This document shows positions 15,249-37,337 of a stretch of DNA of 64,000 nucleotides, piece after piece. Every line of letters begins with the position of its first letter. Position 1 is the stretch's first letter. The notes under the pieces were generated by a model. That model made no database searches, was not told where the DNA came from, and worked only from the letters and a program-made list of their open reading frames with translations. This DNA comes from JAYKJB01 sp035284745 [NCBI: Candidatus Sericytochromatia bacterium] (GTDB taxonomy: Bacteria > Cyanobacteriota > Sericytochromatia > S15B-MN24): NCBI GenBank assembly GCA_035284745.1, contig JAYKIL010000012.1, positions 62,001 through 126,000 of the forward strand. Direction: 5' to 3'. The position numbers were made by a program, and so were the translations under genes.

Positions 15249-15830
15249 ATGGCTCTGATTAATTACGCCACCCGCGAAGTGAATTGCAAAATAGTGTATT
15301 ACGGAACCGGTCTTGGGGGAAAAACGACGAACCTGGAATTTATCCACAAGCAAGTCCCACCTCACGTTCGCGGCGAAATGGTGAATCTGGCCACCCCAAC
15401 GGAAAGAACACTTTATTTCGACTTTCTATCCTTGGACCTCGGCAGCGTTCAGGGTTTCAAAACTCGTTTCGCTCTTTACACGGTCCCCGGTCAGGTCGAG
15501 TATAACGCCAGTCGCAAACTGATCCTGAATGGGGTGGATGGAATCGTTTTTGTGGCAGACTCACAGCAATCGCGCTGGAGCGACAACCTGGCATCCATGC
15601 AGAATATGGTCGACAATCTGGCCGAATATGGATTGAACCCCGACGACGTTCCGTGGGTTCTGCAGTTAAATAAGCGTGACCTGCCTGACATTTCCTCCCT
15701 TGATGAACTGAAGCACGCGCTAAACCCCAAAGGAATTCCGACATTTCCCGCCATTGCACACCAAGGACACGGCGTATTTGACACTCTCAAAGCAGTCAGT
15801 CGTGCTGTTCTGGCTCGCTTATCCGGATGA
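15249..15830 (+). CDS. mglA: MglA-family small Ras-like GTPase
   Basis: 193 residues, full family length. It opens with the typical [19 protein letters not shown]. Motifs: P-loop GTGLGGKTT at 20-28, switch I around [24 protein letters not shown] in place of the Ras DTAGQ (a hallmark of MglA), a [19 protein letters not shown] block, NKRDLP base-recognition motif, and the final [12 protein letters not shown]. MglA sets cell polarity and drives gliding or type IV pilus-based movement. Upstream genes encode a Roadblock protein (likely MglB-like GAP) and a PATAN protein. Confidence 0.95.
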
Positions 15831-22084: not shown

Positions 22085-23635
22085 TTATCGCTGAGAGGGG
22101 AACAAGATAGCCCCCGACTGCGCCGGCAGAGCCCTCAGGATAATCTTGCCGTCAGTCACTGTGGCACTACTCTTTCCAAGGGCATCCCGCAAACGCGTTC
22201 CGTTGGCAAAGCTATCGCCCAATGGAACCGTGATGTCCCGGGCTTGCGTTCCACTGTTCAACACCACCACTGCCTTTTCACCGCGATCTTCTCGCAAGAA
22301 AGCCAACTGCCGGAAGTGATTATGCCTCAACAGTGTCTTCACTTCCCCGCCGCGCAGGGATGGATGTGCACGCCGAACGGAAACCAATTTCCGCACGAAT
22401 CGAAGCATCTCATTGCTGTCGCGCGCCTCCGACCAGGGAAAACAACGACGGTTATCCGGGTCTTTACCGCCCACCATACCAATTTCATCTCCGTAATAGA
22501 TCACAGGAGCACCGGGCTGCGTCATCAAATAGAACATCGCCTCTTTGGCCCGTGTTAAGTCACCGCCCGCCACCGTTCGAATGCGGGGCACGTCGTGACT
22601 GCCCAGAATATTGAAACTGGCTTCTGTGATCTCGCGTCCATAGTGACGACGCAAACCATTCTCACGAGAGTCGAGCTCATCAACGCTGATTTTTTGATAG
22701 GCAAAAAAGTCAAGAATACTGTTCCGCCCCACATAGTTCATCACCGCGTCAAACTGATCGCCCTTCAGCCATTGAGAACCGTCCTCCCAAATCTCCCCAA
22801 CAATGTAGGCCTGGGGGTTAATGGCGCGGACACGTTTACGCCACTCCCTCCAAAAATCGGGGTTATCGATTTCGTTCGGCACATCCAAGCGCCATCCATC
22901 AATGCCTTGACGGGTCCAGTGTTCTGTCACATTAAACAGGTACTCTTGCACGTCACGGTTCTTGGCAGCGGTCAATTGCGGCAAAGTTCCGAAACCCCAC
23001 CAGGCATTGTAATTGGGCTTGGGGCTGTGCACGACCGGGAAGCCCCAAATGGTGTAGAAATTCCAATACGGACTCTTAGGACCCTTCTCCCGGCAGTCCA
23101 GGAAAAACGGGTGATCATCGCCCGTGTGGTTGAATACGCCGTCGATAACCACCCGAATGCCCGCGCGATGCAGATCGTCCAATAACGCCTTAAATTCCGC
23201 ATTGGTTCCAAACGCCGGATCAATTTGCATGTAATCCGCGGTGTTGTACTTGTGGTTAGAGGATGCCTTGAACAACGGGTTGAAGTAGATCGCGTTGATT
23301 CCCAAGGACTTCAAATAGGGAATTTTCGCGCGAACACCCGCCAAATCACCCCCGAAAAAATTCTCATACTCGGGTTTACCACCCCAAGGTTGAACCCCCT
23401 TCGGGTCGTTTCCCGGATTACCGTTCAAAAACCGCTCAGGGAAAATCTGATAAAAGACCGCATCTTTCACCCACGCCGGCGTAAATCCTTGGGCCGATTT
23501 GCGCGCTGAGTTTTTAAATTGTTGAGCCGCTTTAGTCGCACCGGTTGTGTTCGCAAACAGAGTGCCACAACCTGTGAGCGCGAGTGAAACCAGGGCCGCG
23601 AGCGCAGTCGCTCGGGCAGCAATGACACGATGCAC
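22085..23635 (-). CDS. Secreted lipoprotein alpha-amylase family enzyme (GH13, cyclomaltodextrinase-like)
   Basis: 516 residues. Signal peptide ending in lipobox LALTGC, so it is anchored to a membrane outside the cytoplasm. The TIM-barrel GH13 motifs are complete: region I DGVFNH, nucleophile Asp in GWRLDVPNEI, acid/base Glu in VGEIWED, third acid in LGSHDVPR. The early WVKDAVFYQIFPERF is typical of cyclomaltodextrinase/neopullulanase-like enzymes. GTG 23635 was chosen because AGGAG lies about ten bases upstream; GTG 23665 is possible. It probably degrades alpha-glucans or maltodextrins outside the inner membrane. It has its own promoter and terminator. Confidence 0.9.
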   Translation of the reverse strand: MHRVIAARATALAALVSLALTGCGTLFANTTGATKAAQQFKNSARKSAQGFTPAWVKDAVFYQIFPERFLNGNPGNDPKGVQPWGGKPEYENFFGGDLAGVRAKIPYLKSLGINAIYFNPLFKASSNHKYNTADYMQIDPAFGTNAEFKALLDDLHRAGIRVVIDGVFNHTGDDHPFFLDCREKGPKSPYWNFYTIWGFPVVHSPKPNYNAWWGFGTLPQLTAAKNRDVQEYLFNVTEHWTRQGIDGWRLDVPNEIDNPDFWREWRKRVRAINPQAYIVGEIWEDGSQWLKGDQFDAVMNYVGRNSILDFFAYQKISVDELDSRENGLRRHYGREITEASFNILGSHDVPRIRTVAGGDLTRAKEAMFYLMTQPGAPVIYYGDEIGMVGGKDPDNRRCFPWSEARDSNEMLRFVRKLVSVRRAHPSLRGGEVKTLLRHNHFRQLAFLREDRGEKAVVVLNSGTQARDITVPLGDSFANGTRLRDALGKSSATVTDGKIILRALPAQSGAILFPSQR

Positions 23636-23711
23636 GTCAACACATCTCCTATGAAATCGTGACACGACTCGTGAAAGTCGCGGATGTAAAACCGAGGACC
23701 GACAACACCTG

Positions 23712-23740
23712 ATTATAACATGTTCTTATCAAATTCTTAA
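23712..23740 (-). promoter_or_regulatory. Promoter of the GH13 lipoprotein gene
   Basis: Reverse strand TTAAGA (23740-23735), 17-base spacer, perfect TATAAT (23717-23712). Predicted start near 23705, leader of about 70 bases. The surrounding 60 bases are unusually AT-rich. Confidence 0.65.
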
Positions 23741-23750
23741 ACATTTTATC

Positions 23751-23776
23751 AAAAAAAATTTCCGGCCAGTGACCGG
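23751..23776 (-). terminator. Rho-independent terminator of the two-lipoprotein operon
   Basis: Reverse strand hairpin CCGGTCACTGGCCGG (23776-23762), then AAATTTTTTTT. It ends the transcript of the NHL-repeat lipoprotein just before the promoter of the amylase gene. Confidence 0.7.
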
Positions 23777-23817
23777 TCCCAAAGGGGCTGAAGGATGGTG
23801 GATGAAAAGGGGGCAGC

Positions 23818-25239
23818 CTAAAAACGCTCGGCGTAGCGAGGTGCCTCCACAGAGGCTTGCCACTGCAAGTCTCGTCCCGCCGTCACCTCAATAACACGGG
23901 AATTTCCGGTGTCGGCGATGAGCGTATTCCCGTTAGGTAAGCGAACGGCTGAATTAGGGAGGAAGCACGTCGAGCGCTTCCCATCACCACCATAGTCCCA
24001 CGCAAGTTTGTGGTCACGCGTAATCTCGAGGATTCGGCTATTCCCAGTATCGGTGACCAGCGTATTCCCGTTGGGGAGACGTGTCACGTGGGTCGGGCGA
24101 TTCAATGTTCGAACATCCCCATCTCCAAACCCCCACACGATTCGCCCCCAATCATCTACTTCCAGAACACGGTGATGCCCCGTGTCTGCAATCAATGTAG
24201 TCTTCATATCATCTAAACGTTCCACACTCATTGGCTTACTCAGATCAACGGTCAAAACGCGTTGAATCTTTTGCGAGGTCGAAACCTCAATAATCCGATT
24301 ATTCTGAGTATCAGCGATGAACGTATTTCCGCTACGAGAGCGGGAAACCCCCTGTGGGTTTCCGAGAAGCCCGAGGCGCAGCGACCTGTAGGACCAAACC
24401 ACGGCCCCACTCGCAGAAACCTCCTCAACACCCCGAGGCCCCGAAAAAAGGAGATTTCCCGTCGCCAACACACGTACCTGCGAGGCACTCCGGTTGATCC
24501 GCCGGACCTGGCTGCCCCCGCTTTCCAGTTCCAGCACTCCATCCGGCGTCGCCACCAGTGTATGCCCCAAGCGGTTCACATCCCTGGTAGGCTGCATGCG
24601 AAAGTCTGCCCGCGTGGAAGCACCTGCCTGCAACGAGACCGAGAGGCGATGCTCTCGAAATCCCGGGTAGGTCGCAACAACAATGGGGTTCCCGACCGGA
24701 ACACCCTTCAGCAAAAAAGAGCCATCCGCGTTGGAACGCACTGACGCCGGCATCCCGTGTACCTTCAGCGTCGCGCCGAAGAGCGGAACCCCTGTCACCC
24801 CGTCAAAGACGGTCCCCCCCACACTGCCCCGCGCGGCATGGGGAGGCGTGAGAAGGATGCTAACGAGGACGGGTGCTTCTCCTTCGATATCAAAGGCATG
24901 GGACGCGAAAATCCCATTGGCTCGGGCCACCGCCTGATACCCCTGGCCCGGAGGCAGCTTGGCGAAATTAACGGAGCCATCAGCGCCCGACTTGATCTCC
25001 TCCCGAACAATCCGCCCCTGTGAATCCCTGAGCGTGACCACCGCACCAGCGATCGGTCTCGCGCTGGCATCAATCATCGTCACGGTCACGCCTGACACCA
25101 CCTGGCGATTTTGAGAAACTCCGTTGGTTGGCTGTAGCGCATCCGGCACCCCGAATTCCTGCCGTGATCCACAGCCGAACGCAACCAAGCCAGCGATAAG
25201 CAAGGCCGTTGCATTCAAAAAACGAGAGATTGAAGGCAT
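23818..25239 (-). CDS. Lipoprotein with regulatory-like beta-sandwiches and an NHL-type propeller
   Basis: 473 residues from ATG 25239. Signal peptide with lipobox VAFGC. Residues 45-140 and 140-225 look like two carboxypeptidase-regulatory-like domains (VTVTMIDASARPIAGAVVTLRDSQGR; GTVFDGVTGVPLFGATLKV). The C-terminal half has repeats of the NHL/six-bladed-propeller kind: NTFIADTQNNRIIEV, TTLIADTGHHRVLEV, NTLVTDTGNSRILEI, NTLIADTGNSRVIEV. Likely a surface or periplasmic binding protein with no catalytic signature. It follows the FN3-like lipoprotein by 22 bases. The bases just before the ATG read CACCTCCTG, so there is no ribosome-binding site but an anti-Shine-Dalgarno-like stretch. Confidence 0.75.
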   Translation of the reverse strand: MPSISRFLNATALLIAGLVAFGCGSRQEFGVPDALQPTNGVSQNRQVVSGVTVTMIDASARPIAGAVVTLRDSQGRIVREEIKSGADGSVNFAKLPPGQGYQAVARANGIFASHAFDIEGEAPVLVSILLTPPHAARGSVGGTVFDGVTGVPLFGATLKVHGMPASVRSNADGSFLLKGVPVGNPIVVATYPGFREHRLSVSLQAGASTRADFRMQPTRDVNRLGHTLVATPDGVLELESGGSQVRRINRSASQVRVLATGNLLFSGPRGVEEVSASGAVVWSYRSLRLGLLGNPQGVSRSRSGNTFIADTQNNRIIEVSTSQKIQRVLTVDLSKPMSVERLDDMKTTLIADTGHHRVLEVDDWGRIVWGFGDGDVRTLNRPTHVTRLPNGNTLVTDTGNSRILEITRDHKLAWDYGGDGKRSTCFLPNSAVRLPNGNTLIADTGNSRVIEVTAGRDLQWQASVEAPRYAERF

Positions 25240-25261
25240 CAGGAGGTGACCGCCACACGCC

Positions 25262-26248
25262 CTACGGGACGAAATACGAAACGGGTGCCGTCGCCTTGGC
25301 GATGGCTTTGGCATTGTGCATGTTGTGAGTGTCTGTTCGAACCGCCGCCACGGTCCAAGCGTACCGAGTTCCGACATTCAAGGGCAAAGACCATTGCATC
25401 GGGCGCGTCCCTTCGAAAACATCCATTTGCTGCCCATACATCATGACACTGGCATCGGATTCAGAGCGAAAGCCGCGCCACATCGGAACCGAAGGCAATA
25501 TACCGCGCAACGTTCGGAAAACCTGCACGTAATACCCATCCGCACCACGGGCAGGGGTCCACTTAAAGTAAGGGTTCTGACCCGTTTGAACCGCTGCCTG
25601 GCCGGGCTCGCGCAAATAGGGAATTTCCAAGGGTGGCAAAGGAGCACAATTGTCTTGTCCGGAGGCAATTACATTCCCCGCGCGATCCAAGGCTTCAACC
25701 GTGAAAACATATTCTTGACCGACATTCAAATTCGCCAGGCCCCCCATTCCGCCCCCCACGATGGCGACCGGCATCCACTGCGGCAGGTAATAGCACAGCT
25801 TTCCTTTGTCGCCTGCCGCAGCACCCTCACGTGAAGGGAGCGAGTAGATGCGATAGGCCCCCGCGCCCTTCACCGGCGTCCAAGTGACACGCGCACGAAT
25901 GACGCTGATTCTCACGTTCCCAAGGCCGGGCGCTGGCATCAGGGTATTGGTGGTAGCCAAGGCTCGGATTTGCAAACTCGCAGGCTCCACCGGGGTCTCC
26001 GGAGCCTTGGGAACTGAGGGAAGATTGACCGGTCCCTCAACAGGGTCCGTTTCTGCGAATTCCGGCTGGGTCTCAGGGTATACCTCGCTGACCACCGGGT
26101 TTCGCGCAATCGGAAGCGTTTTTCCGGGCGCGGCCACTTGGTTTCCCAGTGAGGGCATCTGACGGCCACAGGCGGCCAAAAAGGTGGCGCAGAATACGGC
26201 CAATGCGACGCCCTTCAATACGCCGGTTTGGCTCTGCAAATGGGTCAT
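25262..26248 (-). CDS. Lipoprotein with fibronectin-III-like domains
   Basis: 328 residues from ATG 26248, with AAGGGGAG upstream. Lipobox FLAAC near residue 27, then a proline/glutamate-rich linker. Residues 105-200 and 215-328 show the W-x-P-x-x-G-A-x-x-Y-x-I/V pattern of FN3-like or Ig-like beta-sandwiches (VTWTPVKGAGAYRIY; FKWTPARGADGYYVQVF) and end RYAWTVAAV. No catalytic motif. Translated just upstream of the NHL lipoprotein; probably a surface pair. Confidence 0.65.
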   Translation of the reverse strand: MTHLQSQTGVLKGVALAVFCATFLAACGRQMPSLGNQVAAPGKTLPIARNPVVSEVYPETQPEFAETDPVEGPVNLPSVPKAPETPVEPASLQIRALATTNTLMPAPGLGNVRISVIRARVTWTPVKGAGAYRIYSLPSREGAAAGDKGKLCYYLPQWMPVAIVGGGMGGLANLNVGQEYVFTVEALDRAGNVIASGQDNCAPLPPLEIPYLREPGQAAVQTGQNPYFKWTPARGADGYYVQVFRTLRGILPSVPMWRGFRSESDASVMMYGQQMDVFEGTRPMQWSLPLNVGTRYAWTVAAVRTDTHNMHNAKAIAKATAPVSYFVP

Positions 26249-26441
26249 TTCGCGCTCCCCTTCTCTCACACACCTCACGAGCCCACGTTGTTTCGCTCGC
26301 GCTTGTAAATCCAGAATGGCGCACAGGCCACCCTGATATTCTTATCGCGAGAGATGGTGATGAGGTTGCGTCATCCGTATAAAAACTATGTTAAGTTATG
26401 GGTAACACCCACTTAATTAACAGCCTCATAACAAGCAGCAA

Positions 26442-26727: not shown

Positions 26728-27606
26728 TTGTCGACAGCAGCCACTTCCGGAACCCTGTATGTGATTGCCACCCCCATTGGAAATATGGGGGATATCACCG
26801 CACGCGCACTCTCCCTGCTGTCCCAAGTGGACCTGATTGCCGCAGAAGACACTCGGGAAACCCTTAAATTGCTGAGGCATCACAACATCACAACCCCCCT
26901 GATCAGTCATCACGCGCACAATGAGAGAAATTCCACCCCGGGCGTTATCAAGCGCCTCCTCGCGGGGGACAACGTAGCGATCGTGTCAGACGCAGGAACT
27001 CCTGCAATTTCTGATCCGGGGGAAAAACTTGTTTCAGCCGCCATCTCCGCCGGTGTCACCGTCGTTCCAATCCCGGGCGCCACCGCCTTTGTCGCTGCCT
27101 TAATCGCCAGTGGTTTGCCCACTGGACGCTTCGTCTTTGAAGGCTTTCTACCGAGTGAGGCCAAACTGCGACGGCGGGCCCTGCGGGCGCTGGCAAAAGA
27201 AACGCGAACCATGATTTTTTACGAAGCACCGCATCGTCTGTTCGACACGCTCACAGATATGCAAGCGCTGTTGGGTCCACAACGCCCGGCGTGCATCGCC
27301 AGGGAAATCACCAAGCGGTTTGAAACGTTTCATCGCGGGACACTCGATGAATTAGGTCGTGAATTCCAAAATACTGAGGTCCTCGGGGAACTGGTTCTCA
27401 TCATCCGGGGGGCAGAGCCCGCAGACAGCACCCAAGACGGGGGAAGCCTCCCCTCGTGGGAAGAGGCACTGGACGTGCTCCTCGCCGCGGGCACCAAGGC
27501 TTCCATCGCAGCACGAGAAATTGCCCTTCGGTATGACCTCAGCCGAGAGATCGTTTACGGACACGCGGTGAGTCGGCGGGAAAAAAGAACCGGCAAGACT
27601 GAATAA
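26728..27606 (+). CDS. rsmI: 16S rRNA (cytidine-1402-2'-O)-methyltransferase RsmI
   Basis: 292 residues. Canonical RsmI N-terminus (GTLYVIATPIGNMGDITARAL), then AAEDTRETLKLL, VSDAGTPAISDPG (SAM-binding loop), VPIPGATAFVAAL and FYEAPHR. Modifies C1402 of 16S rRNA in the P site. The frame begins with TTG 26728; a GTG at 26761 is closer to the conserved start but would remove family residues, so I kept the TTG with moderate confidence in the start only. The last 45 residues form a variable tail. Confidence 0.95.
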   Translation: MSTAATSGTLYVIATPIGNMGDITARALSLLSQVDLIAAEDTRETLKLLRHHNITTPLISHHAHNERNSTPGVIKRLLAGDNVAIVSDAGTPAISDPGEKLVSAAISAGVTVVPIPGATAFVAALIASGLPTGRFVFEGFLPSEAKLRRRALRALAKETRTMIFYEAPHRLFDTLTDMQALLGPQRPACIAREITKRFETFHRGTLDELGREFQNTEVLGELVLIIRGAEPADSTQDGGSLPSWEEALDVLLAAGTKASIAAREIALRYDLSREIVYGHAVSRREKRTGKTE

Positions 27607-27633: not shown

Positions 27634-29307
27634 TCAGTAAGAGAGGGAATCCCCAGGGGCCATCAAGTGTAAGCGCAGATCTCGTGCGCTGCTCAGCGCT
27701 GGGTTCGCTAAACTGACCTTTCCAGTCTCGAGAACCAATACTGGGTCATCTCCCCACGCGTTGATGCGATGACCCACCAGGCGAATCCCATTGGACGGCG
27801 TTAACCCAATTCCGATCGCCCCGTTCGCCAGCAACGCGTCGACAGCTAGTCGCTCGAGCGCTCCCACCCGCCAGACATCGGGCGTTGCGACCATTCCCGG
27901 CGCGAAGCGAAGCCCCGGTGCCAAATCCGCCCGCCCGGCTGCAGTGGTTCGCGTGGCGGGTTCTCCCACAATCCCAACAGTCGCCGCGGCCGCCAAGCAT
28001 TGCAAGCGTTTAAGATGCTCACGAAGCACATTTCCCGGGTTTCCACGCAAAGCAGAGGCCAAGGTTCCCGCCGGATCCTCAACAAGAAGCAGTCCCCCCG
28101 CGATGGTCAAATACTTCGTCAGCAAAGGAGAGCGAACCTGATCCGCAGACAAGATTCGCACAGTCGTCCGCCCTGCTGATGTGAGGGCAGATTGCCATCT
28201 TTGCGCCAACGAAATCGCATCATTGCCAGCCAAGACCAATAATTCTTCAGGCAGCGGCGCAAATGCGGCCGTCTTGGAATCATCCGCAGCCACCAGCGAG
28301 GACGGAACCGACTCTTTTCCTTGCAGCCACAACGCTGCAGCCTCCAGGGGCAAACGTACAGGCGGCGAGAGCATCGGAACCCGTTCGTTCTCTTCGCGTC
28401 GCCATCGCAGGGATTCACCGGCCCCAAGAATGTGCATCTCGACGTCTCTCATGGATATGGGGGGGCGCAACGGACGCTTCACCCGAGCACGAGAGAAATC
28501 TAACAACGAGACGCGCCCTTCCCCCAAGACGCGGACGCCCTCCGAGGTTACAACCGCTGCGGTTCCCTCATCAACGCCCAGGCCCCACACGCCCGGTGAT
28601 TGGGCAGACGCTACCAACAGGCGTCCCAGACGCCCCTCTCTGCCAAAATGGGTGTCCACGAGAACATCCGGAAGCAGGCCCAAGCCATCACGCAGTTCGA
28701 GGCTGCCGGGCGAAATACCGCGCCGCAGCGCCGAGGCGCTCAGTCCGGATGTAATATAATTCGGCCCCCAAACCATGGCCCCCGCGCTGGTTCCAGCCAA
28801 AACAACTCCCCTCTGCCATGCAGCGAGCAAAGCTCCGTGGGCGGGGGTTCCTTGTATCACCTGCGCCAGCCGGATCTGATTGCCACCCGTCGCATAAATC
28901 AGATCGGCCTCGCCAATCAGAGACAGAATCGCGGGGTCATAGGCTTGGTCTCGACTGAGCAATGGAAGTACCGCCGCACGTTTCACCCCAAGTCGCTGCT
29001 GGAAGAAACGCTCATAAGCGGCACCACTTTGCGCTGGATTACTGGAAGCCGTGTTCAGAATCAGAACCTGACTGTCACGTCCACGTGCCAGTTCAAGCAC
29101 CTCTTGTATCAACTCTACATTTTCAGACCCACCGCCGAGCGCCACCAACGTTCCAGACCGAGTCTGAGCAAATCCCGGCCAGGCCATCGCTAAAAAGCAA
29201 AAAATGGCGAGCAAACAAGCCTGTGACCGCCAGAAACCGTGTCTGACAGAAAAGCACAGAGCCAAGACATCCATTGCAAAACGCTTCACGACGGTTCCAG
29301 TTTCCAT
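27634..29307 (-). CDS. Secreted cyanophycinase-family (S51) peptidase with duplicated, degenerate second half
   Basis: 557 residues from ATG 29307 (22-base overlap with the upstream gene); ATG 29274 is the alternative. Signal peptide ending MAWPGFAQ, so it is exported. First domain (about 52-310): VALGGGSEN, the nucleophile Ser174 in LAGTSAGAMV, then DVLVDTHFGREGRLGRLL and WGLGVDEGTAAVV, all cyanophycinase hallmarks. Second half (about 345-557) lacks the GTSAG serine but echoes the end of the first: PGMVATPDVW, AIGIGLTPSNGIRLVG, ARDLRLHLMAPGDSL matching MRDVEMHILGAGESL. Cyanophycinase degrades the beta-Asp-Arg polymer; here an isoaspartyl or other acyl-peptide substrate outside the cell is possible. 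Last gene of the five-gene operon. Confidence 0.8.
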   Translation of the reverse strand: METGTVVKRFAMDVLALCFSVRHGFWRSQACLLAIFCFLAMAWPGFAQTRSGTLVALGGGSENVELIQEVLELARGRDSQVLILNTASSNPAQSGAAYERFFQQRLGVKRAAVLPLLSRDQAYDPAILSLIGEADLIYATGGNQIRLAQVIQGTPAHGALLAAWQRGVVLAGTSAGAMVWGPNYITSGLSASALRRGISPGSLELRDGLGLLPDVLVDTHFGREGRLGRLLVASAQSPGVWGLGVDEGTAAVVTSEGVRVLGEGRVSLLDFSRARVKRPLRPPISMRDVEMHILGAGESLRWRREENERVPMLSPPVRLPLEAAALWLQGKESVPSSLVAADDSKTAAFAPLPEELLVLAGNDAISLAQRWQSALTSAGRTTVRILSADQVRSPLLTKYLTIAGGLLLVEDPAGTLASALRGNPGNVLREHLKRLQCLAAAATVGIVGEPATRTTAAGRADLAPGLRFAPGMVATPDVWRVGALERLAVDALLANGAIGIGLTPSNGIRLVGHRINAWGDDPVLVLETGKVSLANPALSSARDLRLHLMAPGDSLSY

Positions 29308-30932
29308 TCCCACGTGTTCCACAGGTTTCCCCGTATCGTTGGATTCGGTCTAAAACCTTGCAGGCGCGGACTGGTTGCATCCAAACCGACCCAATATAAC
29401 AGGGGAATCACTGGAAGATCGAGACGTAATTGCGCGGCAAGCTCGTGATAAATTCGCTTGCGCGCAGAGGACTCCACGGTTCGCAATCCCCGCTCTAGCA
29501 ATCCGTCCACGCGCCGTTCACGATAACGTGAGCGATTCTGTCCGACGGGCGGCACCTGATCCGAGCGCCAACGAAAAGTGGTATCCGGGTCCGGGCGAGA
29601 CAGTGAAGCCAGCAAGGCCAGATCAAAAGTGCCTTGAGCGAGTCGCCCGCGAGGAACCCCAAATATTTGCGAAGGAGGCCAGCGTTCAATTTCAAGTTCA
29701 ATACCCACATCACGCCACTGTCGTCTCCACATTTGCGCAGCCAGAGAGCGTGAGGGTTTGTCGGTCGTCGTGAGCAAGTTCAATGCCAAACGACGTCCAT
29801 TTTTGCGGCGAACACCGTCCACCCCCATCACCCATCCCGCGTCGGTCAAGAGACGCTCTGCCAGTCGGCGATCGGGGGGATAGGCATTCACCCCACGGGC
29901 ATCGAAAGCCCAGTGAGCCGGGGTCAACTCACTCCACGCTGGCTGTAATACGCCGCTGTAGGCACGCGCGTTCAACTGCTGCCGATCAATCAGATGTGCC
30001 ACGGCACGTCGAACCCGTAAGTCAGACAGAATCGGATTCTCCAGATTAAAGACCAGGTGTTCCCACGTCCCTGACGTGGTCAGATGGACCCGCTCGGGGG
30101 CCTCACGTTGAAGCGCATCAAATGTCGCGGGAGGGGCTCCCTGCAAAAGGTCCGCCTCCCCAAGACGCCACATTTGATAAGCTGTCGCGTCACTGGGAAT
30201 GAACCGTAAATCCATTCGCTTAATGGCAGGGGGTCCTCTGAAATAATCATCATTGGCAACGGCCAAAACACGATCGCCGCTGCGCCAGGCTTCGTAGCGG
30301 TATGGCCCAGTCCCGACAGGAGCCAAATTCCAGCTCTGGCGGAGAAAATCACCCTTGGCAGCCGTCAACAAATGGGCCGGCAACAGGAACGGAAAGAGCT
30401 CGGCGAAAGGGGCATACGGACGAGAAAAATGAAGCACTGCCGTGTGTGGATCTGGCGTATCGATGCGACGAATTTCCTCAAAACCAGAACGAGACAGAGC
30501 TGGGAATCGAGGGTCCATAATGAGTCGCCACGTGGCCTTCACGTCATCACTGGTCAGAGGATGTCCGTCGTGCCAACGCACGCCCTTGCGCAAGCGATAC
30601 GTGACGCGCATCGCGCCCTTTTTTATCACGACCCCGCCATTGGCGATAGAAGGCACCCGCTCTGCGAGATCGGGCTGCCAGCGTCCCCGTTCGTCGCTGA
30701 TCACAAGCCCACTGTAGAACAGGGGAGCCATCGCTCCAACGACGGCCATCGGAGACAAATACGGATTCAATGAGTCCGGTTCTTGCGAAAAAATAACGAC
30801 GGCTGTTCCGGGGGCCGAGCGCACAGAGATCTTGTCGCCCGTTTCTTTCCGAGACGCCGGGCACGCCGTAAGCGAGAAGGCAAAAAGGACCGCCGCTGAA
30901 TAAATAGCGAACGGGTGTCGCAATGCGTTCAC
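29286..30932 (-). CDS. Peptide/nickel-type ABC transporter substrate-binding lipoprotein (SBP family 5)
   Basis: 548 residues. Lipobox SLTACPAS near residue 24. Family-5 features: EPDSLNPYLSPM, YRLRKGVRWHDGHPLTSDDVKATW, VGTGPYRYEAW, a long lobe, LRVRRAVAHLIDRQ, and IPLLYW near the C-terminus. Most of the family captures oligopeptides. No permease or ATPase genes are adjacent, so it may serve a distant transporter or act as a sensor. Starts with ATG overlapping the previous stop (4 bases, ATGA) and leads directly into the cyanophycinase-family gene. Confidence 0.9.
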   Translation of the reverse strand: MNALRHPFAIYSAAVLFAFSLTACPASRKETGDKISVRSAPGTAVVIFSQEPDSLNPYLSPMAVVGAMAPLFYSGLVISDERGRWQPDLAERVPSIANGGVVIKKGAMRVTYRLRKGVRWHDGHPLTSDDVKATWRLIMDPRFPALSRSGFEEIRRIDTPDPHTAVLHFSRPYAPFAELFPFLLPAHLLTAAKGDFLRQSWNLAPVGTGPYRYEAWRSGDRVLAVANDDYFRGPPAIKRMDLRFIPSDATAYQMWRLGEADLLQGAPPATFDALQREAPERVHLTTSGTWEHLVFNLENPILSDLRVRRAVAHLIDRQQLNARAYSGVLQPAWSELTPAHWAFDARGVNAYPPDRRLAERLLTDAGWVMGVDGVRRKNGRRLALNLLTTTDKPSRSLAAQMWRRQWRDVGIELEIERWPPSQIFGVPRGRLAQGTFDLALLASLSRPDPDTTFRWRSDQVPPVGQNRSRYRERRVDGLLERGLRTVESSARKRIYHELAAQLRLDLPVIPLLYWVGLDATSPRLQGFRPNPTIRGNLWNTWEWKLEPS

Positions 30933-31963
30933 AAGATCTCCAGATCCTCACTGGGAAACTCGTTATCGAGATTTAAACCCTCGCCTGAGCGCCCCATCTG
31001 AGGCTCAGGATTCCTAGGAGCCGCTAAAAAACTGTCCTCGAGGTCATTGCGAATCTGAGGTAGATTCAAGTCGAGTTGGTCCAAGATATACATGGCACCG
31101 GCCACATCCAAATCCAGCAAACCCATTAACAGATGTCCTGTCCCGACGTGAACCAACCCCTGTTTCCGCGCAAGACCCCACGCCAAATCACAGGCTTCCT
31201 CACACCAACGTGACGGCTTCAAATCACCTGACAGCGTGCCACTCCCTCTCCCAACGGCCCGCGCCGCGACGGCTTCGACCACCACCGCACGGGCACCATG
31301 TGCGGCCAGGATCTGCGACGCAAGGCCTCCCCGTGCATCAATGAGACCAACCAATAATTGTTCCGTCCCCACAAGGTTGTGCCCCCAAGCCCGGGTTGCG
31401 GCCTCGGCCATTTCAAAAACCTGCCCCCCTTCTGCTGTTAACAAGCGGGGGACAAAATGACGCGGGAGAACAGGGGTCTCGCCCTCCTCTGTGACCTCTA
31501 CCTCCTCCGAAAAGGAACCAAGCTTGGCCCTGACATCCCGAACGATGGCCCCGAGATTCAATGACAGGTCACGAAGCAAAAATTGAGCGGCCGTGTTGGG
31601 TTCCTCCAGCAAAGCCAAGAAAATATCTGCGCTCTCGACCAACTTCGCTCGCGGATCGATCAATCTTCCAAGCACACGAATAGTGTCCGGAGAAAAAACA
31701 AGGTCCTCTTGGCGAGCCAGGCTGTAGCCCCGTCCAGACAAACGCTCCGCCGCCATCCTCAATTGGCGCGAGGTGACCCCGTGACGCTGTAGCGTAATAT
31801 TGGCTAATCCCCGTTGCTCGTGCACGAGTCCGAGCAAGAGATGATCAGTCTCAACCTGATTAAATTCCAAGCGCAGAGCCTCTTCACGGGCTGCATTGAG
31901 AGCCTGAATTGCGCTGGCAGAAAACTTTTCAAGCAGCTTAGACCTCTCTTCCAGAGCTGTCAC
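30929..31963 (-). CDS. Stand-alone double Clp N-domain protein (no ATPase)
   Basis: 344 residues from GTG 31963 (TTG 31966 is one codon upstream), overlapping the kinase gene by 26 bases. Four Clp repeat units in two pairs: SASAIQALNAAREEALRLEFNQVETDHLLLGLV, the second near FSPDTIRVLGRLIDPRAKLVESADIFLALLEE, a third with EQLLVGLIDARGG, and a fourth with VHVGTGHLLMGLLD. These match the ClpA/ClpC N-domain. There is no Walker A/B, so it cannot be an unfoldase. Similar free Clp-N proteins (plant ClpT, bacterial ClpC-N homologues) adapt or stabilise Clp proteases. The position in a two-component/peptide operon is unusual. Confidence 0.8.
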   Translation of the reverse strand: MTALEERSKLLEKFSASAIQALNAAREEALRLEFNQVETDHLLLGLVHEQRGLANITLQRHGVTSRQLRMAAERLSGRGYSLARQEDLVFSPDTIRVLGRLIDPRAKLVESADIFLALLEEPNTAAQFLLRDLSLNLGAIVRDVRAKLGSFSEEVEVTEEGETPVLPRHFVPRLLTAEGGQVFEMAEAATRAWGHNLVGTEQLLVGLIDARGGLASQILAAHGARAVVVEAVAARAVGRGSGTLSGDLKPSRWCEEACDLAWGLARKQGLVHVGTGHLLMGLLDLDVAGAMYILDQLDLNLPQIRNDLEDSFLAAPRNPEPQMGRSGEGLNLDNEFPSEDLEIL

Positions 31964-33365
31964 CAAGCCCCACTTGCCTCAACGGCAGACTCACAAACAC
32001 TGTCGTACCCTGGCCCTCTGTTGATTCCACATGAATATCGCCGCAGTGGGCATCCACTGCCTGCTTCACAATGGTCAACCCCAGACCGCTGCCACCTTGG
32101 AGGCGAGAGCGCCCGCGAGTGACCCGAAAGAATCGATCAAAAATATGAGGCAGATCCTTGGCCGGAATTCCAATGCCTGTGTCTGCTATTTCCAAATGAA
32201 GCCTGCCCGCTTCGGCATCGAGGATGGCCCGCACCACCACCTGGCCCCCCGCAGGAGTAAATTTGGTGGCGTTGGCCACCAGGTTGACCAAAACCTGTCG
32301 CAAGCGGGCGCGATCACCTTCGATTTGCACCGGGACGTTCGCCTCAGCCACTGCGAGGGAGACATCCCGTTGTTTGGCGAGCGGAGAAACAGTCTCCACC
32401 GCATCGCGCAGCAGAGGGTTCACATCTATCAACCCCACGTTTAAGCGCTCGCGACCGGCCTCCAAGGCAGCGACATCCAGCAGGTCGTTGACCAACTCCC
32501 GCATCCGGTCAATTTCTCGCAGCGCATCATTCAAAAACTCATCCCTCACCGATGGATCATCCTTTGCGCCATCGACCAAATTCTCGAGCAGGACTTTTAC
32601 CGACGTCACGGGCGTGCGTAATTCATGAGAGGCATTCGCAATGAAATCTTGGCGCAAGCGGTCTTGCTCGACTTCGTGCGTAATGTCCTGGTAACTGACC
32701 AAGAATCCTGCGAGAGACCCTCCCCCCCCTTGTAAGGGCGCACTATAGCGACGAATAAACTGCCGGGGACGCTCCAGCTGAATAATATCCGTGCGAGGCC
32801 TCTCGGGAAACCGAACCATCTCCTCTTCGATGAGAGCCAGTTGTTCGGGAACAAAAACGCGCGCGTGGAACGCCCGGTCAAAATCAACGTCCCGATCCCT
32901 GCCGTCGGCAGCCTCGGCATCGTGTGCCATACCCCGCAACGCAAAATTAGCCCAAACAGGCTGTCCTGACGGCGTTGTCAACATAACCCCTTCACTCAGA
33001 CTGTTCAACACCGACTGCCAGTCGGTGACCATCAAGTGTCCTACGGGCTGGCTCGAGCCTGCCGAGAAGCCCTGCAGTGCACGCAAGAGTTCCATCCACG
33101 TCGCACCATCAGGGCCTCGCAGGGAGGGAACCGGAGTTAATTCGCCCGCCACTGTCAGGCGCACCGACTGCAAAATTTGCTCTATCGGGTGCAGGAGAAG
33201 TCCTATGACCACGGACGAAAGCAACCATCCCACCCCAGCGACCAATCCAATGCTCAAGGCTTCTGGAAGATCGAAATAAATGGCGAGCAACCAAAAAACA
33301 AAACCGGCGACGCCCAACAGCAGAAAGTTGAACAGAATCAAACGCGCGTAAAGCAGGCGAACCAT
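31938..33365 (-). CDS. PhoR-type membrane sensor histidine kinase
   Basis: 475 residues. Two transmembrane helices (about 8-28 and 38-58) with only a few residues between them, so no large extracellular sensor. A PAS-like region (about 115-230; SLSEGVMLTTPSGQPVWAN, GFLVSYQDITHEVE) is followed by the HisKA box NASHELRTPVTSV, N-box NLVANATKF, and ATP boxes DTGIGIP and GGSGLGLTIV. It starts 33 bases after the response-regulator gene. It may sense a cytoplasmic or membrane cue. Confidence 0.95.
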   Translation of the reverse strand: MVRLLYARLILFNFLLLGVAGFVFWLLAIYFDLPEALSIGLVAGVGWLLSSVVIGLLLHPIEQILQSVRLTVAGELTPVPSLRGPDGATWMELLRALQGFSAGSSQPVGHLMVTDWQSVLNSLSEGVMLTTPSGQPVWANFALRGMAHDAEAADGRDRDVDFDRAFHARVFVPEQLALIEEEMVRFPERPRTDIIQLERPRQFIRRYSAPLQGGGGSLAGFLVSYQDITHEVEQDRLRQDFIANASHELRTPVTSVKVLLENLVDGAKDDPSVRDEFLNDALREIDRMRELVNDLLDVAALEAGRERLNVGLIDVNPLLRDAVETVSPLAKQRDVSLAVAEANVPVQIEGDRARLRQVLVNLVANATKFTPAGGQVVVRAILDAEAGRLHLEIADTGIGIPAKDLPHIFDRFFRVTRGRSRLQGGSGLGLTIVKQAVDAHCGDIHVESTEGQGTTVFVSLPLRQVGLGDSSGREV

Positions 33366-33398
33366 AGTGCCACCGGATGCAAAGCGCTGAGAGGCGCG

Positions 33399-34118
33399 TT
33401 AGGAAACTTCTGCGGGCCGCGTCCGGCGTTCAAAGCGATAACCCACCCCTCTCACCGTTTGAATGCGCATCGGGTGGTTCGGGTCCTTCTCAATTTTCTC
33501 ACGCAACCAATGGATATGAACGTCCACGGTCCGACCTTCGCCCGTAAAATCATAGCCCCAAACCTGCTCGATTAAATACTCTCGACTCAGCACCTTGTTA
33601 GCATTCAAGGCCAGTAGTTTCAACAATTCATATTCTTTCAAGGTCAAGTTGAGCACCCGTCCCCCCAAGGTCACCTCGTGACGGGTCAAATCAATGATGA
33701 GATCCCCAATCTCAATTTTATCTGGCTGCGCCTGTTTCGCCTCCCCATATCGGGTCACCAAGCGCAGCAAAGCCTTCACTCGGGCCAGCAACTCTCGCAG
33801 ACTGAAGGGCTTCGTCACATATTCGTCAGCACCAATCTCTAAACCAACCACTTTGTCGATTTCTTCCCCCTTGGCCGTCAACATGATGACGGGGATGGGC
33901 ATCTCTTGACGCAGTTGACGACAAACCTCGTAGCCATCCAGAAGCGGCATCATCACGTCAAGCACCATCAAATTAGGCTTCTCACGGCGCGCCACCTCTA
34001 GGGCCTGCTGGCCGTCGGAGGCCGTCACCACGACATAACCTTCCTTCTCAAGGCTGTATTGGATGCTTTTCACGATGGAAGGTTCATCATCGACGACAAG
34101 AATCTTTGCAGGCGCCAT
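33399..34118 (-). CDS. PhoB/OmpR-family response regulator
   Basis: 239 residues from ATG 34118 with TAGGAG ten bases upstream. Receiver domain: VVDDE, phospho-acceptor in VLDVMMP, Thr in IMLTAKG, Lys in YVTKPFS. The winged-helix output domain holds LTLKEYELLKLLALNANKVLSREYLIEQVWGYDF and GRTVDVHIHWLREKIEKDP...IQTVRGVGYRFE. First gene of the operon with the kinase, Clp-N, peptide-binding and cyanophycinase-like genes. It resembles RpaB/PhoB-type regulators. Confidence 0.95.
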   Translation of the reverse strand: MAPAKILVVDDEPSIVKSIQYSLEKEGYVVVTASDGQQALEVARREKPNLMVLDVMMPLLDGYEVCRQLRQEMPIPVIMLTAKGEEIDKVVGLEIGADEYVTKPFSLRELLARVKALLRLVTRYGEAKQAQPDKIEIGDLIIDLTRHEVTLGGRVLNLTLKEYELLKLLALNANKVLSREYLIEQVWGYDFTGEGRTVDVHIHWLREKIEKDPNHPMRIQTVRGVGYRFERRTRPAEVS

Positions 34119-34376
34119 ACGGCTTGAACTCCTAGTAACGCAAACGAGCAACCCGTCAGGGGACCAGAGTGCTGATGCGTATTCGGGCCGCTCAATCTCA
34201 TCTGGACACAGATGCCACCGCTCAGCCCGCGAGCAATGTTCAGCAATTCCATGGGCTTATACCCCACGCGCAGAGGGCGTAGCAAGCCTTCACGAAGATT
34301 TACGTTTAAAAACACTCCCAAAGCAAGTATCCAAGGGACTTTACGGAAAAACAGGGGGTATCATGCATCCATCACG

Positions 34377-37337
34377 ATGCCGATGCCTCCCCTCTGCTCA
34401 AAAAACTTTCGAGCCCTTCTTCTGTTGGGCGCGTGCCTTGGGGCCACGTGGCCCTCAGTTCCTGCGTGGGCGGCGAACCATCCCGAACGACGCTGGAGGA
34501 TACACGACAGCGAACACTTCCGCCTTCACTTTTTTCCCGAAATCCAAGGCACTGCCGAACGCGTATTGTCAGCAGCCGAAGAAGTTTATGCACGCCTGCG
34601 GTACGACTTTGGGGCCCCCGAGGGGGCCCGTATTCCAATCATTCTCGATCCTGATGCGTTTTTTAACGGAGAAGCGGAACCTTTCAAGGATCGAATCACC
34701 CTAGACCCCGCGTTGACATCATCCTCCATCGTCGGCACGCGACGATTCGTCGCCCACGAATTGGCGCACGTGATGACTTTTCGCTCGCTTTCAACAGGAC
34801 ACGTTCTATCCAAACTCAACGGCCTCAGTACCATTCCAACTTGGTTTCTCGAAGGGGTGGCCCAGTACGAGGCGGAGTATTGGTACCCGAGTTTGGACCG
34901 GATGCTCAGACTCTCAACGCTTGAAGACAAACTGCTAACGGCCAGTGAGCGACAGCATTTTAGAACGCTGGGAGTTCACTCGGCTGCGGCCGGATATACC
35001 GAAGGATATTCCCTGTGTCGCTTCATTTTTGAGACTTATGGCCACAGAAGCCTCTCCAGGCTCATGAAACGATTGCGAAGCGGCAAAGGCAACTTCGAGA
35101 GCGCCATCAAAGCGACCTTCGGAAAGTCCCTGCAACAACTGGAAGCGGAATGGCGGACAGGGCTGAATCGGGGTTACCAAAAACAGGTGTCCCCCAAGCA
35201 CGACCAAGTTCCCGGAGCGCAAACGGTCATCGCTTCACGCGAAGGCGAAATTCACATCCAACCGAAGATGAGAGCCGATGGCCGGCAATTGGCATTTCTT
35301 ACCAGCCGTCATCAAGGACGTTTCTTATATCTGCGCGGCCAAGTCTTCGGTTTTCTCTCCCTGGCCTTGGCAAACTCAAGGGGTGAACAAGTCAATATTT
35401 TGCCAGTCGCCCAAGGCACCATCAGCGCATTCGCTTGGTCACCCAAGGGCGATCGGTTGGCTTTTTTACAAGGGGTCCGAGACGCATCCAATACCCCAAT
35501 TTTTTCCCTTTTTTCCTACGAGATTGCATCGGGCCGACTCGAACGCCTGAGCCAGGACGAGAACGTCGTCGCCCTGAGTTGGAGACCTGGTAGCTCTGAA
35601 ATTGCCTTTGTGAGCGTCAACGATGGAAACAACACCTTAAAGCTGGTCAACAGGTACACCCGAAAAACCCGTACCGTCTATCAAGTGCCTGACCTCGTGC
35701 AATGGCGGGATATCCAGTTCAATCCTGATGGCTCGTCATTGGCACTGGTGGCCTTTAAGCCTGGTGAAAACGGCCGTTTGCTCCACTTTGACCTCAGCCA
35801 AGGACTCACACGAGTCCTTGGCGAACAGCGCCAGAAAGGATCTGACAGTCACCCGTGTTGGACGCCGGATGGCCGCAACGTCATCTACAGTTCTGAAAAA
35901 AGCGGCTTCAGCCAGCTTTATTCTCTCGAATTGAGTACGGGAAAGGAAACGGCTCTCACCAATACATTCCGCGGCGCGGAGACCCCATCAATCACTCCTG
36001 ACGGAAAATTCGTTTACTATACAACGTACCTGGCCCAGGGAAGTCGCATTGAAAAACTGGCGATAGGGCAGGCCTCCGACGCAGAAAAAAGGCACCCGAG
36101 TGTCCAGCCAGAAAACGGGTTCAGCCTCCCCCACGGAAACGCAAAAGGTGGCGAATTATGGGACGCGAGCAAGCCCGTAATTCCCGCGGAGAATGTCAGT
36201 TTTTTCCAAGTGGGGGCTCAATCGCCACAGCTGCCGTGGAGACGGCGCGCTCCCTTCGAGCGTCAGCCCCCCCCTCCGTGGCCGCCCATTGATGAGGCGC
36301 ACGCCAAACCCTATCAACCGGCGATGAGCAATGACCTGCTCATTCCTCAAATGACGGTGGATGAACGCGGGCAACAAATCGGGGTCGCCGGAACTTACAG
36401 CGACATTCTGCAACACCACGAATTAGGCCTCGATGTCCGTTGGGGGCTCTGGAGCCAAAGATTTAGCTACAATGCGTCTTACACAAACAAAATGAACACT
36501 TTCTCGTGGAATGCCAGCCTTTTCGATGTCCCTCAACTGGCAATCGCGCCCGAGGTCCGCAGTGAGAGCCGCCCTCTCTTTGAACACCTCTACCTCCAAC
36601 GCCGGCGGGGTTTACGCTTCGATATCGAGACTCCCCTCGGCGCAGGGCGTCACCTTCTTACCAGCGCTCAATGGAGCACACTGGGAACGCTGCTGGCTCC
36701 GCTCTCCGGCTCAAACACGCTTCAGGAAGGGAGTTTGAACACGGTCGGTGCCGTGTACCGAGAACAACGTGTGCGCCCTGATGTAGATCAAGACATCAAC
36801 CCAGGCGATGGTTACCGTCTCGCGATCGCCGGCACGGTGGCGGACAGACGCCTCGGCAGCGCCTATGACTTTTCGCAATTAAACGTCGTCGGCGAACGGT
36901 ACTATCCCATCATCAGAGACTGGCGCCATCACCTCACCTGGCGTTGGGGGCTCGGGATGCAAACAGGCGACTCGCCCGTACCTTTTCTGCTGGGAGGCCC
37001 CAATGCCTCGGCACAACTCTTTGCGCTCCGGGGTTATGCGGTGGGAAGTTTTTCTGGCAACCGCCTCGCCAGCACTGGATTGGAGTACGTGTTTCCGGTA
37101 TTCAAACACCTTGATCGTACATTAGGACCTCTCTATCTTGACCGCTGCTACATGTCTACCTTCCTAGACACCGGGGGTGCCTGGCAAGACACACTGTCTC
37201 CCCGCGTTGGAAGTAGCATGGGCGGTGAAATACGCCTGCGGGGAACCGTGATGGGGCGGCAAAATCTCACCGTGCGCTTGGGCTTCGCGCAGGCTCTCGG
37301 GGGGGATAACGGCTCTGGATTCTATCTCACCTTCTGA
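34377..37337 (+). CDS. Secreted metalloprotease with a TolB-type propeller and outer-membrane barrel
   Basis: 986 residues from ATG 34377 (ATG 34383 is also possible). Signal peptide ends PAWA near residue 32. Residues 35-310: peptidase MA-like gluzincin with VAHELAHVMTF (HELAH, 127-131) and the third ligand in WFLEGVAQYEAE (Glu160). Residues about 330-620: repeats of the TolB/WD40-like type (SPKGDRLAFLQG, WTPDGRNVIYSSE, TPDGKFVYYTT). Then a Pro-rich linker and a beta-rich C-terminus with SGNRLASTGLEYVFPVF, DTGGAWQ and RLGFAQALGGDNGSGFYLTF, like the surface-antigen/Omp85 barrel family, ending in a terminal Phe. So the active site would be tied to the outer membrane. Confidence 0.75.
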   Translation: MPMPPLCSKNFRALLLLGACLGATWPSVPAWAANHPERRWRIHDSEHFRLHFFPEIQGTAERVLSAAEEVYARLRYDFGAPEGARIPIILDPDAFFNGEAEPFKDRITLDPALTSSSIVGTRRFVAHELAHVMTFRSLSTGHVLSKLNGLSTIPTWFLEGVAQYEAEYWYPSLDRMLRLSTLEDKLLTASERQHFRTLGVHSAAAGYTEGYSLCRFIFETYGHRSLSRLMKRLRSGKGNFESAIKATFGKSLQQLEAEWRTGLNRGYQKQVSPKHDQVPGAQTVIASREGEIHIQPKMRADGRQLAFLTSRHQGRFLYLRGQVFGFLSLALANSRGEQVNILPVAQGTISAFAWSPKGDRLAFLQGVRDASNTPIFSLFSYEIASGRLERLSQDENVVALSWRPGSSEIAFVSVNDGNNTLKLVNRYTRKTRTVYQVPDLVQWRDIQFNPDGSSLALVAFKPGENGRLLHFDLSQGLTRVLGEQRQKGSDSHPCWTPDGRNVIYSSEKSGFSQLYSLELSTGKETALTNTFRGAETPSITPDGKFVYYTTYLAQGSRIEKLAIGQASDAEKRHPSVQPENGFSLPHGNAKGGELWDASKPVIPAENVSFFQVGAQSPQLPWRRRAPFERQPPPPWPPIDEAHAKPYQPAMSNDLLIPQMTVDERGQQIGVAGTYSDILQHHELGLDVRWGLWSQRFSYNASYTNKMNTFSWNASLFDVPQLAIAPEVRSESRPLFEHLYLQRRRGLRFDIETPLGAGRHLLTSAQWSTLGTLLAPLSGSNTLQEGSLNTVGAVYREQRVRPDVDQDINPGDGYRLAIAGTVADRRLGSAYDFSQLNVVGERYYPIIRDWRHHLTWRWGLGMQTGDSPVPFLLGGPNASAQLFALRGYAVGSFSGNRLASTGLEYVFPVFKHLDRTLGPLYLDRCYMSTFLDTGGAWQDTLSPRVGSSMGGEIRLRGTVMGRQNLTVRLGFAQALGGDNGSGFYLTF

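What the first reader, a model, noticed from the sequence alone, without database searches (positions are those of the whole stretch)
27634..34118. Five-gene operon joining a two-component system, a Clp-N-only protein, a peptide-binding lipoprotein and a secreted cyanophycinase-family peptidase
Seen: regulator, kinase, Clp-N, SBP and S51 genes lie on one strand with gaps or overlaps of +33, -26, -4 and -22 bases, so they form one transcription unit. Known: Clp N-domains bind ClpS or substrates, family-5 SBPs bind peptides, and S51 enzymes cut beta-linked or small acidic peptides. Inference: a peptide-scavenging or peptide-sensing pathway in which the kinase/regulator pair controls an external peptidase and capture protein. 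The Clp-N protein might link extracellular peptide status to intracellular proteolysis. I know of no described system with this composition.
Basis: partly seen in the sequence, partly recalled or inferred. Interest (0 to 1): 0.75.

Follow-up and report, generated by a model that had tools for sequence, protein, structure and literature searches.

The report
Family-specific peptide-handling operon in Sericytochromatia
In one family of non-photosynthetic relatives of cyanobacteria, an old sensor-regulator gene pair has acquired three tightly coupled extra genes for a Clp-N-only protein, a peptide-binding lipoprotein and a secreted two-domain peptidase, so the gene cluster is real but local to that family and its job is not proven.

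Summary
By best matches the window belongs to Sericytochromatia. Of 18 class genomes searched, the five-gene order occurs in G013 and G014, the only two held of their family, and was seen in none of the other 16. The two downstream overlaps (-4, -22 bases) are the same in all three loci. Elsewhere the parts lie apart: the regulator-kinase pair is an older class-wide unit, and 8 genomes carry the Clp-N-only gene and the tandem peptidase on different contigs. So it is a conserved family-level operon. The "peptidase" is a catalytic S51 domain fused to a diverged second S51 copy without the Ser motif. Its triad is intact, but a pocket arginine kept in 16 of 17 shorter S51 proteins of the class is Glu. 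The binding protein is an orphan OppA paralogue; a full Opp operon lies elsewhere in G014. The Clp-N protein has four repeats; the ClpC phosphoarginine-site glutamate is kept in repeat 3 in 14 of 14 rows. Its gene is directly followed by a solute-binding-protein gene in 6 of 14 loci, from two unrelated families. Peptide scavenging is plausible; regulation and Clp linkage are untested inference.

The parts
33399..34118 (-). OmpR/PhoB-type response regulator, first gene of the operon
   Evidence: Pfam Response_reg + Trans_reg_C; below the cut-offs of the 25 NCBIfam families shown, best YycF 266 vs 340; 77-96% identical in seven class loci
31938..33365 (-). sensor histidine kinase; two hydrophobic stretches with only a few residues between them (read from sequence by eye), then HisKA and HATPase
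   Evidence: Pfam HisKA/HATPase_c; best NCBIfam PnpS 269 vs cut-off 400; relatives beside the regulator in other class genomes
30929..31963 (-). Clp-N-only protein: two tandem ClpC-type N-domains (four repeats), no AAA+ ATPase
   Evidence: Pfam Clp_N only, 2 stretches; halves align to each other, 98.9%, E 1.4e-16; ClpC N-domain structures are the best PDB hits; glutamate of the GTE motif kept in repeat 3 in 14 of 14 rows
29286..30932 (-). SBP_bac_5 peptide-type solute-binding lipoprotein (lipobox LTAC read from sequence), orphan: no permease gene beside it
   Evidence: Pfam SBP_bac_5 E 1.8e-72; closest NCBIfam Opp4A/NikA, below cut-offs; orthologues 58-68% in G013/G014, paralogues in opp operons elsewhere
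27634..29307 (-). secreted tandem S51 peptidase (signal peptide read from sequence by eye): catalytic domain plus diverged second S51 copy
   Evidence: TIGR02069 cyanophycinase 173.9 bits, cut-off 126.6; family profile aligns to solved cyanophycinases 7uqv/3en0; C-terminal half vs profile of shorter S51 proteins 98.8%, E 1e-16
27634..28245 (-). C-terminal pseudo-S51 domain without the Ser nucleophile motif (boundaries approximate)
   Evidence: single-sequence fold failed, pLDDT 40.5
34289..34303 (-). candidate regulator-binding direct repeat GTAAA-N6-TGAA upstream of the regulator; only exact match in the window, weak evidence
   Evidence: 1 match; at least one in 26 of 100 shuffles; exact repeat before the regulator in G014 and G015, imperfect in G013, not seen so placed in G002, G001, G010, G004
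34212..37337 (+). context: divergent Peptidase_MA-like + PD40 propeller + Omp85 barrel protein (start codon uncertain)
   Evidence: Pfam; relative beside the regulator in G014, G013, G002, G015, G001, not in G010 and G004
26728..27606 (+). context: convergent RsmI-type methylase gene at the end of the operon
   Evidence: Pfam TP_methylase; also convergent in L149 and L150, in L150 with one more gene between

Best explanation
A class-wide two-component operon (PhoR/WalK-like kinase with its regulator) gained, in one family, a peptide-handling tail. Shown: order, overlaps, conservation in the family, domain make-up. Inferred: the tail is transcribed with, and controlled by, the regulator. The secreted S51 protein works as a built-in pseudo-dimer, one live and one dead half, that trims peptides in the periplasm. 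The orphan OppA-like lipoprotein hands the products to the Opp permease encoded elsewhere. The Clp-N protein is a cytosolic mimic of the ClpC N-domain that binds one class of ClpC ligand, through its third repeat, and so tunes ClpC-dependent proteolysis when uptake genes are on.
For: Five-gene order in 2 of 2 held family genomes plus the window; same -4 and -22 overlaps; the three S51 copies form one clade, 100/100. Ser, His, Glu of the triad kept in the window. SBP is an orphan paralogue of an Opp-type system; G014 also has two ATPase genes, an SBP and two permease genes in a row at L212 (one permease confirmed by Pfam). Clp-N: ClpC-like, no ATPase, glutamate kept in repeat 3 in 14 of 14 rows; E32 and E106 are phosphoarginine-site residues of ClpC (PMC12583610, passages; mapped through). 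Clp-N gene directly followed by an SBP gene in 6 of 14 loci: SBP_bac_5 in 3, Bmp in 3, although the 18 class genomes hold only 84 SBP_bac_5 and 10 Bmp matches, about 5 per genome. ClpS is present in both family genomes.
Against: In the 8 other class genomes with both Clp-N and tandem S51 the two genes are unlinked, so neither needs the other. No permease or isoaspartyl dipeptidase gene in the operon. No operator, promoter or transcript is demonstrated. The Clp-N role rests on homology and position only; ClpS was found in 9 of 18 class genomes, and the arginine-kinase search found 0 of 18 but is uninformative because its control was silent. For the Clp-N tree the three family copies group with low support only, 65/41. 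The 'followed by SBP' count was chosen after seeing the data, and it represents two lineages, not six events.
Confidence: 0.45

Rival explanations
1. Passenger operon: the three genes sit behind an expressed housekeeping regulator-kinase pair for expression's sake and have unrelated jobs; there is no common pathway.
For: The regulator-kinase pair stands without them in the outside loci read; Clp-N and tandem S51 are on different contigs in 8 genomes; in six loci outside the family the tandem S51 gene lies back to back with a glycerol-kinase-like FGGY gene (family confirmed by Pfam for one).
Against: Order and both tight overlaps kept across three lineages that differ by 32-49% in these proteins; Clp-N is followed by SBP genes of two unrelated families.
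Confidence: 0.3
2. Cyanophycin scavenging: the secreted S51 enzyme cuts environmental cyanophycin to beta-Asp-Arg, which the SBP captures, as an extracellular CphE-type system.
For: TIGR02069 above cut-off; signal peptide by eye; Thr in place of Gln173 as reported for CphE (PMC3235067, passages); Gln101, Asp172, Arg180 and Arg183 positions kept; cyanophycin synthetase over cut-off in 8 of 18 genomes including G013 and G014.
Against: The position of critical Arg178 is Glu in the window, G013 and G014 and not Arg in 9 of 10 tandem rows, while 16 of 17 shorter S51 proteins of the class keep Arg. GGDQ is GGNQ in the three. In 7 of the 8 genomes with the synthetase a separate shorter S51 gene shares a contig with it, and in none does the tandem gene. 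No isoaspartyl dipeptidase among the five genes.
Confidence: 0.12
3. Peptide-antibiotic defence: an envelope-stress kinase, a capture lipoprotein, a peptidase, and a Clp-N decoy that soaks up peptides aimed at ClpC.
For: ClpC2 of mycobacteria is a Clp-N-bearing sponge for cyclomarin A (PMC10030653, abstract and passages); the kinase has almost no external sensor loop, a layout known from envelope-stress kinases (recalled).
Against: The cyclomarin-contact set F2, F80, E89 is not complete in the window's first module, read by eye; the kinase is class-wide, not tied to the tail; no toxin is known.
Confidence: 0.1

Closest known systems
Extracellular cyanophycinase CphE / intracellular CphB (S51)
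   Same: S51 family, triad Ser-His-Glu, signal peptide, Thr at the Gln173 position as in CphE
   Different: Tandem architecture with a diverged second S51 domain; Arg178 equivalent lost; not on a contig with cphA in the class genomes searched
Cyanophycin utilization locus (Ben Hania et al., as cited in PMC10206079, passages seen)
   Same: A cyanophycinase-family gene beside a transport gene
   Different: No isoaspartyl dipeptidase and no permease in the operon; adds a two-component pair and a Clp-N protein
Mycobacterial ClpC2 and plant ClpT (Clp-N-only proteins)
   Same: ClpC N-domain homology without AAA+ modules
   Different: Two full N-domain copies, no separate non-homologous N-terminal region as described for ClpC2; operon context differs
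Orphan OppA-type binding proteins such as MppA (sharing of the Opp permease recalled)
   Same: SBP_bac_5 lipoprotein without its own permease; full Opp set elsewhere in G014
   Different: Set in an operon with a regulator, kinase, Clp-N and S51 gene
PhoR/PnpS-PhoB, WalK-WalR, NblS-RpaB pairs
   Same: Kinase and regulator domain make-up; best NCBIfam scores
   Different: Below the cut-offs of all 25 families shown for each protein

Membership tests
Cyanophycinase (TIGR02069, CphB/CphE) | Family profile above curated cut-off | tested here: met
   173.9 vs 126.6 bits
Cyanophycinase (TIGR02069, CphB/CphE) | Catalytic Ser, His, Glu | tested here: met
   S174, H220, E247 of the window protein; among the ten tandem rows Glu is Gly in the G005 copy
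Cyanophycinase (TIGR02069, CphB/CphE) | Pocket Gln101, Asp172, Gln173 (Thr in CphE), Arg178, Arg180, Arg183 | tested here: not met
   Q, D, T, R180 and R183 kept; Arg178 is Glu in the window
Cyanophycinase (TIGR02069, CphB/CphE) | Hydrolysis of cyanophycin to beta-Asp-Arg | not testable with these tools
   needs an assay
Cyanophycin utilization locus | Isoaspartyl dipeptidase gene in the cluster | tested here: not met
   none among the five genes and five neighbours scanned; the rest of the genome is not held
Cyanophycin utilization locus | Transporter in the cluster | tested here: not met
   binding protein only; no permease or ATPase among the genes scanned
ClpC2-type Clp-N-only protein | ClpC N-domain without AAA+ modules | tested here: met
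ClpC2-type Clp-N-only protein | CymA-contact residues F2, F80, E89 | tested here: inconclusive
   read by eye for the first module only: Leu at F2, Phe at F80, no Glu at E89; second module not judged
ClpC2-type Clp-N-only protein | Binding to its own promoter | not testable with these tools
   needs DNA-binding assays
WalRK/PhoRB/RpaB-type two-component pair | Equivalog score above cut-off | tested here: not met
   YycF 266/340, RpaB 246/330, PhoB 231/296; PnpS 269/400, WalK 252/725
Orphan Opp-type binding protein | SBP_bac_5 lipoprotein without adjacent permease while a full Opp set exists elsewhere | tested here: inconclusive
   window: no permease beside it; a full Opp set is shown in relative G014, but the window's own genome is not held, and the G013 paralogue at L210 has no permease beside it

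The most novel reading that the evidence does not exclude
Non-photosynthetic Cyanobacteriota use proteins built only of ClpC N-domains as dedicated mimics of the ClpC docking site, encoded with solute-binding proteins and sensor kinases, so that regulated proteolysis follows nutrient uptake; the window operon is the peptide version, with a pseudo-dimeric secreted S51 enzyme of new specificity.
Probability: 0.13. Interest if true: 0.75.

Novelty: new variant of a known kind. Interest (0 to 1): 0.4.

Why it matters
If the Clp-N protein really follows transport genes, it would tie ClpC-dependent proteolysis to nutrient uptake by a mimic of the docking domain, a mode for which the mycobacterial sponge ClpC2 is the nearest described case that I found. 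The tandem live-plus-dead S51 enzyme is a testable case of specificity change in the cyanophycinase family, in a lineage next to cyanobacteria.

Tried and rejected
A scan of genome contigs with the Clp-N protein found no relative; the second and last scan used the MglA-like GTPase to place the lineage. The plasmid collection gave no match to the Clp-N protein. The first gene caller (longest ORF) gave antisense artefacts in GC-rich loci and was replaced by a codon-score caller; the Clp-N neighbourhoods of G009 and G010 (AT-rich) were read only. Arginine kinase search: 0 of 18, but its control rang in 0 of 14 genomes, so it says nothing. Single-sequence fold of the S51 C-terminal part failed (pLDDT 40.5); no fold search was made on it. 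The candidate binding repeat upstream of the regulator is too weak to identify the regulator type. A reading as the organism's own cyanophycin storage enzyme was rejected because CphA lies with other, shorter S51 genes in 7 of 8 genomes. The co-occurrence of Clp-N and tandem S51 (all 10 genomes with the second have the first; 5 genomes have neither) may only reflect kinship. A first pattern count of the Arg178 position (14 of 15 loci tried, L139 dropped) was replaced by an alignment of all 17 loci held for shorter S51 matches, in which L139 has Lys.

Full report
What is there. The regulator starts at ATG 34118, the Clp-N protein at GTG 31963 inside the kinase gene, the SBP at GTG 30932 (GTGA overlap), and the S51 protein at ATG 29307; other in-frame starts exist. 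The operon runs towards a convergent RsmI-type gene and starts opposite a divergent gene for a Peptidase_MA-PD40-Omp85 protein.

Where it comes from. No whole genome is held for the window. The MglA-like GTPase at 15249-15830 has its best matches in records titled UBA8530 (77%), Candidatus Sericytochromatia S15B-MN24 (73%) and Candidatus Tanganyikabacteria (71%), with two untitled bacteria at 72%. The regulator is 96% and 93% identical in G014 and G013 against 77-88% in five other loci of the class. G014 keeps, over 19 kb, the order amylase, NHL protein, the protein at 25262-26278, RsmI, the five genes, the outer-membrane gene and GDPD, with two further genes before RsmI. So the window is a near relative of these two.

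Synteny. Of 18 class genomes searched, the Clp-N orthologue is in 13 (E at most 1e-14, not counting ClpC-sized frames) and the tandem S51 in 10 (matches covering both halves; in G001 as two ORFs). The SBP query matches at E at most 1e-30 in 15 of 18, mostly paralogues, and the kinase query at E at most 1e-50 in 17 of 18. The five-gene order was found in G013 and G014 only, and these two are all that is held of their family. All 10 genomes with the tandem S51 also have Clp-N; in 8 of them the two are on different contigs. In the 11 outside genomes with Clp-N its direct neighbours could be read and are other genes; two of these contigs are short (G003 4.4 kb, G016 3.4 kb). In five outside loci where the gene after the kinase could be read (G002, G001, G010, G009, G004) it is not Clp-N; in G015 the contig ends about 0.4 kb after the kinase; in the others it was not read. 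The -4 and -22 overlaps are the same in the window, G013 and G014, which suggests translational coupling (inference). The three S51 copies form one clade with full support; for Clp-N the three are one group in the best tree with low support, 65/41.

The S51 protein. It passes the cyanophycinase model, and the profile of the tandem family aligns to solved cyanophycinases over about 265 residues. The remaining C-terminal part matches its own catalytic domain (98.4%, E 5.1e-14) and a profile of eight shorter class S51 proteins (98.8%, E 1e-16). The first half of both alignments is loose. The Ser motif is absent in it. So it is a live and a dead S51 domain in one chain; that they pack like a dimer is inference, and a fold of the C-terminal part alone failed. 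PMC3235067 (passages seen) names Gln101, Asp172, Gln173, Arg178, Arg180 and Arg183 as critical in CphB, with Thr for Gln173 in CphE. The window has Gln, Asp, Thr, Glu, Arg, Arg. Of ten tandem rows nine lack Arg at 178 and all ten keep Arg180 and Arg183; of 17 loci held for shorter S51 matches of the class, 16 have Arg at 178 and one Lys. The triad Glu is kept in nine of ten tandem rows (Gly in G005) and in 13 of 17 shorter ones. In six loci outside the family an FGGY, glycerol-kinase-like gene runs away from the tandem S51 gene (one confirmed by Pfam).

Cyanophycin. The synthetase model is passed in 8 of 18 class genomes, including G013 and G014. In 7 of the 8 an S51 gene is on the same contig as a CphA gene, and its open frame is a short one of 280-372 residues; in G014 no S51 match shares the CphA contig. 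The tandem gene shares a contig with CphA in none of the 8. It is therefore not the usual storage partner.

The SBP. Orthologues (58-68%) are found in the two family genomes. Paralogues at about 39-44% lie in complete Opp-like sets (two ATPases, two permeases) in five loci, G014 among them (L212, L213, L215, L216, L217), in sets cut by contig ends in three (L211, L214, L218), and without permease in G013 (L210) (names by eye except one permease). Use of the Opp permease by the orphan is inference; MppA of E. coli is a recalled precedent (only a listing was seen).

The Clp-N protein. It has four repeats, i.e. two ClpC-type N-domains, without ATPase. ClpC E32 and E106 are crucial phosphoarginine-site residues (PMC12583610, passages); numbering through the ClpC chain puts them in the GTEH motifs. 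At that position Glu is found in repeat 1 in 3 of 14 rows (the window has Asp), in repeat 2 in 2 of 14, in repeat 3 in 14 of 14, in repeat 4 in 0 of 14. In 386 genomes of the phylum, 13 full-length relatives at E below 1e-120 are all from this class; the next, from E 8e-41, include Clp-N arrays in open frames of about 449-497 residues. In the six such loci read, the gene lies by ruvX-, DUF1292- or tilS-like genes (those names by eye; Clp_N by Pfam for two). The list is capped and its remaining matches are largely ClpC-sized frames. What follows the Clp-N gene on the same strand: SBP_bac_5 (window, G013, G014); Bmp (G004, G016, G017); a histidine kinase (G002, G015); a short ORF and then NupC (G001); other or opposite genes in five (G003, G005, G006, G009, G010). 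That is 6 of 14 before an SBP gene, in two lineages of the Clp-N tree. SBP_bac_5 and Bmp matches number 84 and 10 in 18 genomes (some are fragments), so chance adjacency is rare, but the category was chosen after seeing the data.

The pair. Regulator and kinase resemble WalR/PhoB/RpaB and PnpS/WalK but stay below all cut-offs shown. A GTAAA-N6-TGAA repeat lies before the regulator, once in the window, with a chance of about one in four.

Known or new. Nine searches for cyanophycinase/CphE, Clp-N-only proteins, ClpC phosphoarginine sites, orphan binding proteins, and Sericytochromatia with two-component, cyanophycin or Clp terms listed no paper whose title or abstract start describes this composition; only listings were judged, apart from the four papers read in passages, and the library holds open papers only. 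Every part belongs to a known kind; the combination, the tandem S51 and the double Clp-N protein are a new variant.

Verdict.

Noticed in passing
L237, L238, L240, L241, L243, L247 (genomes of the phylum with 1.7-2.2 Mb): Clp-N-only arrays in open frames of about 450-497 residues (four and five Pfam Clp_N stretches in the two scanned, no AAA+), beside ruvX-, DUF1292- or tilS-like genes (names by eye).
   Followed up: partly
L106, L107, L110, L092: About 470-480-residue proteins with a Clp_N domain and a single AAA module (Pfam checked for L107 only), a shortened ClpC-like form in several class genomes.
   Followed up: partly
L143, L208, L209, L207, L142, L141: The Clp-N-only gene outside the family is followed by a PnrA/Bmp binding protein, by a histidine kinase, or by a short ORF and a NupC nucleoside carrier.
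   Followed up: yes
window 34212-37337: One protein that joins a Peptidase_MA-like domain, PD40 propeller repeats and an Omp85-type barrel, found beside the regulator in five of the seven regulator loci compared.
   Followed up: partly
L157 9570-11212: In G001 the live and dead S51 halves are two overlapping ORFs, either a split gene or an assembly frameshift.
   Followed up: no
L125 1498-3197: Two adjacent shorter S51 genes with signal-like N-termini in G013, a further expansion of the family.
   Followed up: no
L151-L156 and L158, S51 C-termini: Tandem S51 proteins outside the family end in PRF, ARF or PRR, a tail absent from the window, G013 and G014 copies.
   Followed up: no
window 13820-15830: DUF4388 protein, a short ORF and an MglA-like small GTPase in a row, a motility- or polarity-type set (role recalled).
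   Followed up: no
window 22085-26278: Row of secreted-looking genes: alpha-amylase-like (by eye), CarboxypepD_reg/NHL protein and a protein without Pfam match.
   Followed up: no
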